Below are positions 8,087 through 19,817 of a stretch of 23,336 bases of DNA, one piece after another (position 1 is the stretch's first letter; every line of letters begins with the position of its first letter). A program made the position numbers and the translations under genes. The notes under the pieces are model-generated. The model worked only from the letters and a program-made list of their open reading frames with translations, had not been told where the DNA came from and searched no databases. This stretch comes from a virus, in the IMG/VR virus record IMGVR_UViG_3300015242_000042, positions 1 to 23,336 of that record; one strand, written 5' to 3'.

Positions 8087-8199
8087 TTTTCGGGTCGATT
8101 GGATAGGGTTATCTACTCAAATTAAATTGGTTAATTGACGCCTTCGGGCAACCCTTCGGCGGGTATAGCCGAATCTCCCTTCCACCACATATCCGAAAA
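8087..8199 (+). ncRNA. Y RNA-like element 1 (no tRNA module)
   Basis: The two ends pair: TTTTCGGGT (8087-8095) with ATCCGAAAA (8191-8199). Inside are the 5' loop CGATT, a second helix GGA.GGG (8101-8108)/CCC.TCC (8177-8183), and the 3' loop ACCACAT. The middle holds AATTAA/TTAATT and CGCC...GGCG hairpins instead of a tRNA part. It ends 3 nt before tRNA-Ile. The same core recurs four more times; the neighbouring Ro60 gene suggests a Ro-binding RNA. Confidence 0.6.
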
Positions 8200-8202
8200 C
8201 AT

Positions 8203-8277
8203 TGGGGTGTAGCTCGGTCTGGTTAGAGCAATCGTCTGATAAGCGATAGGTCGTGGGTTCGAATCCCACCTCCCCAA
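8203..8277 (+). tRNA. tRNA-Ile(GAT)
   Basis: Acceptor TGGGGTG/CTCCCCA with one T-T mismatch, D stem GCTC/GAGC, anticodon loop CTGATAA in stem ATCGT/GCGAT, T arm GTGGG-TTCGAAT-CCCAC, discriminator A. Confidence 0.92.
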
Positions 8278-8278
8278 C

Positions 8279-8415
8279 TTTGTGGGTCGTAGAATGTTGT
8301 TTATCCCGGAACCGGCTGTTAGGGGTTCGACTCCCCTCTGAGGACTTAATTGTCGTCGGTAGCTCAACGGCAGAGCACTGGTCATATTAACGATATTCGT
8401 ACCTATATCCACAAG
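8279..8415 (+). ncRNA. Y RNA-like element 2 with permuted tRNA-like module (anticodon CCG)
   Basis: Terminal helix TTGTGGGT (8280-8287)/ATCCACAA (8407-8414), loops CGTA and GTACCTAT, second helix GAATGTTG (8292-8299)/CGATATTC (8391-8398). Between them a tRNA 3' part comes first: ACCGG, CTGTT, then AGGGG-TTCGACT-CCCCT and CTGAGGA (8311-8344). Its 5' part follows: TCGTCGG, TA, GCTC-loop-GAGC, A, CTGGT (8353-8382). CTGGT pairs with ACCGG at all five positions and TCGTCGG with CTGAGGA at six of seven. The loop assembled from both strands would have seven bases, with CCG at the anticodon place. Confidence 0.6.
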
Positions 8416-8416
8416 C

Positions 8417-8539
8417 TTTATGGGTCGATGATGTTCGATTATCTTATCCGAAATTGAGCGGGCTAGGTTCGATTCCTACCTGTTGGGCTGGAGCGCTATG
8501 AAAGTAGCCGCCCATTCGAACTCGCACCATATCCATAAA
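8417..8539 (+). ncRNA. Y RNA-like element 3
   Basis: Terminal helix TTTATGGGT (8417-8425)/ATCCATAAA (8531-8539), loops CGAT and GCACCAT, second helix GA-GTTCGA (8430-8438)/TCGAACTC (8516-8523) with one bulged base. Inside is a T arm-like hairpin around TTCGATT (8468-8474), but I cannot find a matching acceptor half, so its tRNA part is degenerate or different. Confidence 0.55.
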
Positions 8540-8544
8540 ATAAT

Positions 8545-8631
8545 GGAAGAGCAATCCGATTGGCGACGGAACCTGTCTTGAAAACAGTTGAGGTGTAAAA
8601 GCCCTTGGGGGTTCGACTCCCCCTTCTTCCG
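8545..8631 (+). tRNA. tRNA-Ser(TGA)
   Basis: Class II tRNA with long variable arm. Acceptor GGAAGAG/TTCTTCC, anticodon loop CTTGAAA, T arm GGGGG-TTCGACT-CCCCC, discriminator G as typical of serine. Confidence 0.9.
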
Positions 8632-8652
8632 CTTTAAAACTTAAGGAGTAAC

Positions 8653-9195: not shown

Positions 9196-9258
9196 CGGGT
9201 CGAAGATTTTCGGTTATCTACTTATGCGAAGAAAACACCGATTATCATCACATATCCG
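9196..9258 (+). ncRNA. Y RNA-like element 4 (minimal form)
   Basis: CGGGT (9196-9200) pairs with ATCCG (9254-9258). The loops are CGAA and ATCACAT. The second helix is GAT..TCGGT (9205-9214)/ACCGA..ATC (9237-9246), closed by a short apical part. It is about 63 nt, the shortest of the five, with no tRNA module. Confidence 0.5.
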
Positions 9259-9271
9259 TTCCCAAACTTTC

Positions 9272-9431
9272 AGCCCCTAATTATGTCGGGTCGGATGTTT
9301 ATCGGTTATCTTACTGCTAATAAGGAGTTCCGGGTTCGAATCCCGGCGGTTCCATTCTTGGGACTGTGGTGTAAATGGCAACACGTTAACCCCGATGAAC
9401 GCTGCTACATCCGTCAATATAATTAGGGGCT
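9272..9431 (+). ncRNA. Y RNA-like element 5 with complete permuted tRNA module (anticodon GCT)
   Basis: A perfect 12-bp outer helix (9272-9283 with 9420-9431) encloses CGGGT/ATCCG (9409-9413), loops CGGAT and GCTGCTAC, and helix GTTTATCGG (9297-9305)/CCGATGAAC (9392-9400). Inside, the tRNA 3' part comes first: anticodon arm TCTTA-CTGCTAA-TAAGG, AGTT, T arm CCGGG-TTCGAAT-CCCGG, acceptor CGGTTCC, A (9309-9354). Its 5' part follows: acceptor GGGACTG, TG, D arm GTGT-loop-ACAC, G (9360-9385). All seven acceptor pairs form (two G-U). The short variable loop does not fit a normal serine tRNA. Confidence 0.7.
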
Positions 9432-10078: not shown

Positions 10079-11710
10079 ATGACGAATTCTCTTGGCAAGT
10101 ATGCTGCTTCTCAGAAGCAGGCTAAGGTTGCCACTCCTCAGACAGAGCGTACCCCTGGTCGAACTGATGAGGTAAAGAACAACGCGGGCGGGTTTGTGTT
10201 CAAGGTCGATGAGAAGTCACGACTTGAGCGCTTCCTGATTCTTGGTACCGACAAGGGTACTTACTACGTTGGTGAGCAGAAGCTTACTGGCGAGAACGTC
10301 ACCTTCCTGAAGGAGCTTGTTCGTAAGAACGAGCGTCTGGTTGTGGACACCGCTGTTGACGTCTCTGTAAATGGTCGTGCGCTTAAGAATTCTCCCGCGC
10401 TGTTCGCTCTGGCTACGGTTATGAGCGAGGGTCAGGATAAGGCTTACGCCCGTGCGGCTGTGCAGAAGGTTGCGCGTACCTCTACTCACCTGTACGAGTA
10501 TGGTGATTACATCGAGTCTCTTGGTGGATGGGGTCGTGCAAAGCGACAGTCTATTTCTGAATGGTATGAGTCTAAGGACGCAAGTGACCTATCTTACCAG
10601 GCAGTCAAGTACCGTCAGAGGAATGGCTGGACGCACCGTGACCTCTTTAGGCTTTCTCACCCAAAGGGTGTTGACCGATACGTCGGTGACTTCATTCTTG
10701 GTAAGGAGTCTGAGGCTGTTGCAACGTTTAATGGTCCTGATTACATTGCGGGATTCAATGTTCTTAAGTCTGCACAGACAGTTAAGGATGTTCTGACTGC
10801 TCTTGAGCAGTTCCCGTATATGCCATGGGAGGCTATTCCTACTCAGTTCCTCAAGGAGCAGAAGGTTTGGAAGACGCTCTTCTACCAGGGTCAGCTTCGT
10901 GGTCAGGCTCTCGTTCGTAACGTCACTCGCCTAGCGCGAATGGGTGCGTTCGATGACATGGTTTTCGCTGCTGACTATGCTGCACGACTTGCGGATGCGG
11001 AAATGATTAGGAAGACTCGTCTTCACCCAATCAACTTCCTTAACGCTGTTGTTGTGCATCAGGAGGGTCAGGTTGACCGTAGGAATCAGGGCTATTGGTC
11101 AACGGGACGCAACAAGGATTGGAAGTCTAACGGAAAGATTGTGGATGCTCTCAATGAGGGATTCCACCTTGCTTTCAAGACTGTTGAGCCTGCTAACAAG
11201 CGAACTCTAGTCGCAACGGATGTTTCAGGGTCTATGACTCAGAACGCTATTGGACTGGACCTGTCTTGTGCTCAGGTTTCTGCGGCGGTTTCCATGACGG
11301 TTGCTCGTACTGAGCCTTACAGCGATATCGTTGGCTTCGCTACCGATATTCGTGACCTTGGTATCACTGCCAAGTCTTCTCTGACCGACGCAATGCGTAA
11401 GGTCCAGAGTTACAACTTCGGTGGTACTGATGCGGCTGCTGCAATTAAGTATGCTGACCGACAGGGAATTCAGGTTGACACCTTCGTCGTTATCACTGAT
11501 AACGAGACGTGGGGCGGAAGCCAGAAGCCTTTCCAGGCTCTTAAGCAGTACCGTCAGAAGACCGGAATTGATGCACGTCTTGCGGTTCTCGGTGTGGCGT
11601 CTACGGACTTCACTATCGCTGACCCTACGGACCGTGGTATGATGGACTTCGTTGGTTTTGATTCAAATGCTCCGAAGGCTCTCGCAGACTTCAGTGCTGG
11701 TCGAATCTGA
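10079..11710 (+). CDS. Ro60-like TROVE/vWA RNA-binding protein
   Basis: This 543-residue protein has the plan of Ro60 (bacterial Rsr). An N-terminal alpha-helical TROVE ring covers about residues 40-370; it includes the SHPKGVDRYVGDFILG and LPxQFLKxxxVW-like parts typical of the family. A C-terminal von Willebrand A domain follows, with a complete MIDAS: D381-V-S383-G-S385, T450 and D474. Ro rings hold 3' ends of misfolded or damaged RNAs in the central hole and bind Y RNAs on the outside; in bacteria Y RNA can connect Ro to a 3' exoribonuclease. Its own hairpin-rich leader and a terminator (11716-11742) isolate it. Five Y-like RNAs lie 0.6-2 kb upstream. Confidence 0.92.
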   Translation: MTNSLGKYAASQKQAKVATPQTERTPGRTDEVKNNAGGFVFKVDEKSRLERFLILGTDKGTYYVGEQKLTGENVTFLKELVRKNERLVVDTAVDVSVNGRALKNSPALFALATVMSEGQDKAYARAAVQKVARTSTHLYEYGDYIESLGGWGRAKRQSISEWYESKDASDLSYQAVKYRQRNGWTHRDLFRLSHPKGVDRYVGDFILGKESEAVATFNGPDYIAGFNVLKSAQTVKDVLTALEQFPYMPWEAIPTQFLKEQKVWKTLFYQGQLRGQALVRNVTRLARMGAFDDMVFAADYAARLADAEMIRKTRLHPINFLNAVVVHQEGQVDRRNQGYWSTGRNKDWKSNGKIVDALNEGFHLAFKTVEPANKRTLVATDVSGSMTQNAIGLDLSCAQVSAAVSMTVARTEPYSDIVGFATDIRDLGITAKSSLTDAMRKVQSYNFGGTDAAAAIKYADRQGIQVDTFVVITDNETWGGSQKPFQALKQYRQKTGIDARLAVLGVASTDFTIADPTDRGMMDFVGFDSNAPKALADFSAGRI

Positions 11711-13276: not shown

Positions 13277-13349
13277 GCCCCTGTAGAGTAATGGATAACT
13301 CAGCACTCTTCTAAAGTGTACAATGCTGGTTCGAATCCAGTCAGGGGTA
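13277..13349 (+). tRNA. tRNA-Arg(TCT)
   Basis: Acceptor GCCCCTG/CAGGGGT, anticodon loop CTTCTAA in stem GCACT/AGTGT, T loop TTCGAAT, discriminator A. Confidence 0.92.
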
Positions 13350-13353
13350 CGCA

Positions 13354-19534: not shown

Positions 19535-19801
19535 GGGGTAGCTTGGTTTCGACTTTGCAGGATAGTATATGAACGCAACCGTTCTTTGGTAAAAGAACTG
19601 AAACAGACCAAAACAATAGATGCAAACACTAACTTTGCTCTCGCTGCGTAAGTAGCCGGGTTTGTCGGTGACCTTGGAACAGAACACCGACTAGACAAAA
19701 TGTGTAGATAATGTGCAAGACCAGCAAGTTTGATTGACATGGTTGTGTAACGGTTATATGCTTGATAGTGAAGGACGCGGGTTCGACTCCCGCCTACTCC
19801 A
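19535..19801 (+). ncRNA. ssrA: tmRNA with tag ANTNFALAA
   Basis: The ends form the tRNA-like part: acceptor GGGGTAG (19535-19541)/CTACTCC (19794-19800), discriminator A, the tmRNA-typical TTTCGAC at the 5' side, and T arm GCGGG-TTCGACT-CCCGC. The resume codon is GCA at 19622; the tag frame runs to TAA at 19649-19651 and reads ANTNFALAA, ending in ALAA as host tags for ClpXP. Further stems between tag and 3' end would be pseudoknots. No CCA is encoded. The RNA would free stalled ribosomes and mark their products for degradation. Confidence 0.93.
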
Positions 19802-19817
19802 CAAGATAAGGAAGATT

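What the first reader, a model, noticed from the sequence alone, without database searches (positions are those of the whole stretch)
8279..8415. Second permuted tRNA-like module, broken in the anticodon loop
Here the 3' half (8311-8344) again precedes the 5' half (8353-8382). The anticodon stem forms between them (CTGGT/ACCGG, 5/5) and the acceptor nearly so (6/7). The helix that leads to the Ro-type core leaves exactly from the anticodon loop, and the loop bases of both strands add up to seven with CCG in the anticodon place (Arg). It thus differs in break point from the module at 9272, which suggests that permutation arose more than once or moved.
Basis: partly seen in the sequence, partly recalled or inferred. 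Interest (0 to 1): 0.82.

Follow-up and report, generated by a model that had tools for sequence, protein, structure and literature searches.

The report
Phage Y RNA with tRNA-mimic module
A Streptomyces-type phage carries, just upstream of its own gene for the ring protein Ro, a small non-coding "Y RNA" whose middle part mimics a transfer RNA with its halves in swapped order; this is a genuine, conserved and mostly unannotated RNA, but it belongs to a class already known from bacteria.

Summary
At 8280-8414 the 3' half of a tRNA-like fold (8311-8344) precedes the 5' half (8353-8382). The two are joined by a capped acceptor stem and tied together by a 5-bp anticodon-type stem that opens into a Ro-binding-type stem. 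Eighteen distinct relatives (Streptomyces phages and virus contigs) keep the layout, with compensatory changes in the acceptor, T, D and anticodon stems. The best unconstrained fold of the window copy shows the same layout (one acceptor mismatch), and shuffled sequence almost never yields it. It lies between tRNA-Ile and tRNA-Ser, 1.7 kb upstream of a Ro60/TROVE gene. It is a phage Y RNA of the YrlA kind. A break at the anticodon stem is the normal YrlA layout in Rfam, and bacterial Y RNA is already described as a circularly permuted tRNA. The "loop of seven with anticodon CCG (Arg)" is not conserved and should be dropped. The claim that the module near 9272 has another break point holds: there an intact anticodon arm with canonical U33 and purine 37 is kept. 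Both layouts occur widely in phage and bacterial Ro loci; their order of origin is unresolved. Verdict: new member of a known kind, with an under-described second layout beside it.

The parts
8280..8414 (+). Y RNA (YrlA-type, 'type A' layout), the finding
   Evidence: Ro-type core at both ends, tRNA-like module inside; 18 distinct relatives align; Rfam YrlA 30.9 bits at 8289-8409
8284..8305 (+). 5' strand of the Ro-type core (GGGTCG...TTATC)
   Evidence: five copies in window, 0.05 expected by shuffling; GGGTCG invariant in 19 rows
8405..8410 (+). 3' strand of the Ro-type core (ATATCC)
   Evidence: conserved across relatives and paired with the 5' end in the fold
8311..8315 (+). anticodon-stem 3' strand (ACCGG)
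   Evidence: 5 bp with 8378-8382; five covarying forms among relatives
8321..8337 (+). T arm
   Evidence: TTCGA loop invariant; stem covaries at pairs 1-3
8338..8359 (+). capped acceptor stem (8338-8344 with 8353-8359, loop 8345-8352)
   Evidence: 18-19 of 19 rows paired at every position, both-side changes at all seven pairs
8362..8376 (+). D arm with GG in the loop
   Evidence: 19/19 paired, both-side changes at two pairs
8378..8382 (+). anticodon-stem 5' strand (CTGGT)
8092..8194 (+). further Y-like RNA (Y1), no tRNA-like module
   Evidence: same core at both ends, syntenic in Faust and Sham
8422..8534 (+). further Y-like RNA (Y3), T arm only
   Evidence: same core at both ends; syntenic copies in relatives
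9197..9257 (+). further Y-like RNA (Y4), short stem-loop
9288..9412 (+). Y RNA with the second layout ('type B'): intact anticodon arm just before the T arm at 9330, capped acceptor, D arm
   Evidence: fold z -5.5
10079..11710 (+). Ro60/TROVE protein gene
   Evidence: Pfam TROVE 6e-35, vWA_Ro60 7e-56; DVSGSM in the vWA domain invariant in 7 rows
8203..8278 (+). tRNA-Ile(gat), directly upstream of the Y RNA
   Evidence: ARAGORN, Rfam; same neighbour in relatives
8545..8632 (+). tRNA-Ser(tga), directly downstream of the Y RNA pair
   Evidence: ARAGORN

Best explanation
The element is a phage-encoded Y RNA of the YrlA kind. Its two ends pair into a stem with the core that the phage's own Ro (Rsr) ring protein would hold. 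The other end is a tRNA mimic in circularly permuted order (T arm, capped acceptor, D arm), tied to the Ro stem through the anticodon-stem position. Shown by sequence: the fold, its conservation and covariation, its place near Ro inside a tRNA array. Inferred from known Y RNAs: it is made from the tRNA-array transcript, trimmed by tRNA processing at the flanking tRNA-Ile and tRNA-Ser, bound by the phage Ro protein, and its tRNA-like end tethers a tRNA- or RNA-handling enzyme (in Deinococcus the partner is the exonuclease PNPase) so that Ro steers that enzyme during infection. The confidence given is for the identity as a Ro-associated Y RNA with a tRNA-mimic end; tethering of an effector is about 0.6, PNPase in particular about 0.4.
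For: Core repeated five times in 1.3 kb upstream of a Ro60 gene. All four helices keep pairing in 19 rows with compensatory changes: acceptor at 7/7 pairs, T at 3, D at 2, anticodon stem in five forms CTGGT/ACCGG, GCAGT/ACAGC (one mismatch), GTGGT/ACCGC, GCTGA/TCAGC, ATTGC/GCAAT. Rfam YrlA aligns full length, E 2.8e-4 in the 1.8 kb searched, and aligns to the syntenic copies in eight further phages at 30.8-41 bits. Co-occurrence: among 19 actinophage genomes, Wakanda, Muntaha, BillNye and Ankus lack TROVE and have 0-1 forward cores, while the Streptomyces phages with TROVE have 4-6, except Mandalore with 1; in Wakanda, Muntaha and BillNye tRNA-Ile and tRNA-Ser lie 3 nt apart. The same T-acceptor-D module occurs near Ro in many bacteria. 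Layout and PNPase tethering: PMC8394870, PMC4726728.
Against: Score is below the Rfam gathering cut-off (30.9 against 69), though none of 15 bacterial Ro loci tested reaches it either. The same YrlA model also rings weakly in 7 of 14 control genomes in a genome search. Annadreamy keeps six cores but has no TROVE gene. No expression, binding or processing data; the effector is unknown. Two Ro-bearing phages, ET08 and FuzzBuster, show few matches to this exact core pattern (0 and 1), so the co-occurrence test fits Stanwilliamsviridae best.
Confidence: 0.88

Rival explanations
1. A circularly permuted tRNA gene: the transcript is spliced and ligated so that the two halves give a working tRNA-Arg(CCG).
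Against: The seven loop bases were picked; orthologs have other bases and 7-23 unpaired bases there, no U33, no CCG. Ends pair into a conserved Ro-type core. Bacteria are not known to have the splicing endonuclease this would need (established knowledge).
Confidence: 0.02
2. Two unrelated decayed tRNA halves that happen to lie in reversed order.
For: The locus lies in a dense tRNA array with many tRNA-like pieces.
Against: Conserved as one unit with covarying pairs in 19 rows from two phage subfamilies and virus contigs; no close normal-order copy in the window (nearest tRNA 64% identity, below the 67.5% median nearest-neighbour identity among the window's tRNAs); chance 0.005 modules per shuffled window.
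Confidence: 0.02
3. A Y RNA whose tRNA-like end acts mainly as a decoy for host tRNA-cutting defence nucleases or tRNA-modifying enzymes, with Ro as a stabiliser, not as a tether to PNPase.
For: The phage carries about 20 tRNA genes, a usual answer to tRNA-cutting defences (established knowledge). Competitive inhibition of an anticodon nuclease by YrlA was proposed for Salmonella (PMC7790460). The second layout here keeps U33/R37 anticodon arms with varied anticodons.
Against: This module (type A) has no anticodon loop; no data on any nuclease in this phage or its host.
Confidence: 0.2

Closest known systems
YrlA, bacterial Y RNA (Rfam RF02553; structure 6CU1 from Salmonella)
   Same: T arm, capped acceptor, D arm in that order; closing helix in the anticodon-stem place leading to a stem made of both ends; encoded beside a Ro60 ortholog; circularly permuted relative to tRNA (PMC11472068)
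   Different: phage-encoded, inside a tRNA array, in a set of five Y-like RNAs; 30.9 bits against a cut-off of 69; different core sequence (GGGTCG...TTATC/ATATCC)
Deinococcus Y RNA in RYPER (Rsr, Y RNA and PNPase)
   Same: Ro ortholog plus Y RNA; the proposed way of working
   Different: the PNPase link is not tested here; the partner in Streptomyces or its phages is unknown
Circularly permuted tRNA genes of archaea and red algae
   Same: 3' half before 5' half
   Different: those are processed into working tRNAs; here no conserved anticodon and a conserved protein-binding-type stem at the break
tmRNA
   Same: tRNA mimic that lacks a normal anticodon arm
   Different: no tag reading frame; the window's own tmRNA is elsewhere, at 19535-19802

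Membership tests
Bacterial/phage Y RNA with tRNA-like domain (YrlA kind) | encoded near a Ro60/Rsr ortholog | tested here: met
   TROVE and vWA_Ro60 at 10079-11710, 1.7 kb downstream
Bacterial/phage Y RNA with tRNA-like domain (YrlA kind) | 5' and 3' ends paired in a long stem with a conserved core | tested here: met
   fold and invariant GGGTCG / ATCC columns
Bacterial/phage Y RNA with tRNA-like domain (YrlA kind) | permuted T arm - capped acceptor - D arm module | tested here: met
   covariation over 19 rows
Bacterial/phage Y RNA with tRNA-like domain (YrlA kind) | binds the Ro protein; carries D and pseudouridine; tethers an effector such as PNPase | not testable with these tools
   reported for other species (PMC8394870; PMC4726728)
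Rfam RF02553 (YrlA) as curated | score at or above the gathering cut-off of 69 bits | tested here: not met
   30.9 bits, full-length alignment; orthologs 30.8-41 bits. It is filed with the Y RNAs as a kind, not with this model
Circularly permuted tRNA gene | conserved anticodon and 7-nt loop across the join | tested here: not met
Circularly permuted tRNA gene | joined, charged tRNA product | not testable with these tools
   needs RNA from infected cells
tmRNA | match to a tmRNA model over its length, with a tag-coding frame | tested here: not met
   only short T-arm hits in this region; real tmRNA at 19535-19804

The most novel reading that the evidence does not exclude
Ro-associated Y RNAs of phages and bacteria come in two interchangeable tRNA-mimic layouts: one broken in the anticodon loop (type A, this finding) and one that keeps a complete anticodon arm with U33 and a purine at 37 and is broken between the D and anticodon arms (type B, window 9288-9412). 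One phage deploys both, so that its Ro particle presents two different tRNA faces, the second readable by anticodon-recognising enzymes or nucleases.
Probability: 0.35. Interest if true: 0.6.

Novelty: new member of a known kind. Interest (0 to 1): 0.42.

Why it matters
Phage Y RNAs next to Ro are largely unannotated: most relatives examined show nothing at these places, and a few copies were entered as tRNAs. With covariation support, the set becomes a usable model for what phage Ro particles do, since natural relatives without Ro and Y RNAs exist. Having two tRNA-mimic layouts in one genome makes the question of which tRNA-reading partner each one recruits directly testable.

Tried and rejected
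Arg anticodon and split loop of seven: rejected on orthologs. Permuted tRNA gene giving a working tRNA, and decayed tRNA halves: rejected as above. A normal-order copy of the module in the window: none close; the rest of this phage's genome is not held (G000 is a 23,336-base fragment). MAFFT alignment A2 misplaced the anticodon 3' strand by one column in some rows, so pairs were counted on a segment-by-segment alignment in a script; one row there (L023) has a 4-nt variable region and counts as unpaired at some anticodon positions. Ro-tree labels for layout are incomplete because identical modules were collapsed and many loci were unlabelled; only the statement that both layouts lie on both sides of the deepest supported split is used. 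The promoter/terminator scan gave nothing specific to the element. The primary papers (Chen 2014, Wang 2018, Sim and Wolin 2018) are not held; whether they already describe the second layout could not be checked.

Full report
What was checked. The window is a fragment of an uncultivated phage (a virus record of 23,336 bases). By DNA and by its Ro protein it is a relative of Streptomyces phages such as Faust, Sham, Gilson and Blueeyedbeauty (Stanwilliamsviridae, Loccivirinae). The finding lies between tRNA-Ile (8203-8278) and tRNA-Ser (8545-8632). The Ro60/TROVE gene starts at 10079.

The observation. A script that looks for the whole permuted layout finds two modules on the + strand of the window, at 8321 and 9330, and none on the other strand. 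In 1000 dinucleotide shuffles it finds 0.005 per window, and none with a full anticodon stem. The unconstrained best fold has the same energy as the fold with these helices imposed (-44.6 kcal/mol; z -2.6 against shuffles).

Conservation. The same element lies directly after tRNA-Ile in Faust, Gilson, Sham, Blueeyedbeauty, Limpid, TunaTartare, Beuffert, SparkleGoddess, Annadreamy and Moab. It also lies there in Boydwoodruffvirinae phages (Paradiddles, Braelyn, Targaryen, Tribute), where the flanking tRNA-Ile has another anticodon. Further copies are on IMG/VR contigs. Over 19 distinct rows the acceptor pairs in 18-19 rows at every position, with both-side changes at all seven pairs. The T and D stems covary too. 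The anticodon-type stem occurs in five forms, among them perfect GCTGA/TCAGC and ATTGC/GCAAT. These rows are related by descent, so counts of sequences are not counts of events. Still, the five forms lie in different clades. A decayed pair of tRNA halves would not behave like this.

What it is. Both ends carry a core (GGGTCG...TTATC and ATATCC). The 5' core occurs five times in the window, where 0.05 is expected by shuffling, and all five lie between 8092 and 9310. Such cores with the T-acceptor-D module lie near Ro genes in many phages and bacteria: 94 distinct modules, each with a core-like stretch upstream. The Rfam family YrlA (bacterial Y RNA) aligns over its full length at 8289-8409, with 30.9 bits and E 2.8e-4 in the 1.8 kb searched. 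It also aligns to the copies in Faust, Gilson, Sham, Blueeyedbeauty, Moab, Braelyn, Targaryen and Tribute. All of these are below the curated cut-off of 69 bits. None of the 15 bacterial Ro loci tested reached it either, so missing the cut-off says little. In the Rfam model the order is T arm, capped acceptor, D arm, with the closing helix where the anticodon stem would be. So a break at the anticodon is the normal layout of YrlA. The solved bacterial Y RNA 6CU1 superposes on tRNA as a circular permutation (PMC11472068).

Ro and Y RNAs go together, with one exception. Among 19 actinophage genomes, Wakanda, Muntaha, BillNye and Ankus have no TROVE match and 0, 0, 1 and 1 forward core matches. 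The Streptomyces phages with TROVE have 4-6, apart from Mandalore with 1. In Wakanda, Muntaha and BillNye tRNA-Ile and tRNA-Ser are 3 nt apart. Annadreamy has lost the Ro region that its close relative Limpid keeps, yet has all six cores; this looks like a recent deletion (inference).

The anticodon claim. But those bases are chosen from two strands. In relatives the unpaired stretch between the anticodon stem and the next helix totals 7 to 23 bases, has no CCG and no U33, and in Paradiddles is followed by an extra hairpin. The Arg reading is dropped.

The second module. There an intact hairpin CTTA-CTGCTAA-TAAG sits just before the T arm at 9330, and the Ro stem enters between the D arm and this hairpin. 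Among 94 modules, 35 have a two-strand anticodon stem with at least 4 of 5 pairs (type A; for 5 of 5, 19 seen against 1.1 when partners are shuffled). Thirty-four have a local hairpin with a seven-base loop (type B), against 4 to 20 for loops of other lengths. Only two have both. In 25 distinct type B arms with a single possible register, position 33 is U in 23 and position 37 a purine in 24, as in true anticodon loops, while the anticodons vary. On a quick Ro tree both layouts occur on both sides of the deepest supported split, so the layout appears to have changed more than once. Labels are incomplete, and the direction, and whether the change was a new permutation or only a re-pairing of the same strands, is open. 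A re-pairing is the simpler idea: the bases before the T arm can pair either locally or with bases after the D arm.

How it most likely works. By analogy with Deinococcus and Salmonella (PMC8394870; PMC4726728; PMC7790460), the basal stem binds the phage Ro ring. The tRNA-like end would hold a partner, which in Deinococcus is PNPase. In this phage the RNA pair at 8279-8544 fills the whole space between two tRNAs, so tRNA end processing could free it (inference). A decoy role against tRNA-cutting defences is a rival, more natural for the type B module because that one keeps an anticodon arm.

Novelty. From memory, Chen et al. 2014 reported Y RNAs near Ro in many bacterial and phage genomes, with a tRNA-like domain in at least one per species; that paper could not be read here. 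The finding is therefore a new member of a known kind. The presence of two layouts, one with an intact anticodon arm, is the part that may be under-described.

Noticed in passing
window 9288-9412, paired flanks 9272-9284 / 9419-9431: The second permuted module sits inside a long stem: a 13-bp inverted repeat extends the Ro-type stem; fold z-score -5.5.
   Followed up: partly
L006:2978-3039, L007:3268-3340, L005:7623-7692: Y-core RNAs entered as tRNAs in GenBank: Sham tRNA-Ser(cga), Blueeyedbeauty tRNA-His(gtg), Paradiddles tRNA-Ser(tga) all overlap a GGGTCG...GGTTATC core.
   Followed up: partly
L012 (Annadreamy): Keeps all six Y cores but has no TROVE gene in the whole record.
   Followed up: partly
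L114:3708-3813 (Nocardia flavorosea, next to Ro): Match above the gathering score to RF01656, a nematode small RNA family (stem-bulge type, related to Y RNAs).
   Followed up: no
L002:2080-2235 and L006:1349-1505: manA-like RNA (RF01745; 46.3 and 38.8 bits, cut-off 55.2) after tRNA-Gln in Faust and Sham; not listed in the window.
   Followed up: no
window 13277-13350: ARAGORN calls tRNA-Pyl(cta), but the 7-nt loop reads CTTCTAA, that is anticodon TCT (Arg), as annotated at the corresponding place in Faust.
   Followed up: partly
L002 record (NC_070783.1) at 97494 and similar places in relatives: A further Y core about 29 kb downstream of the cluster in most Loccivirinae genomes.
   Followed up: no
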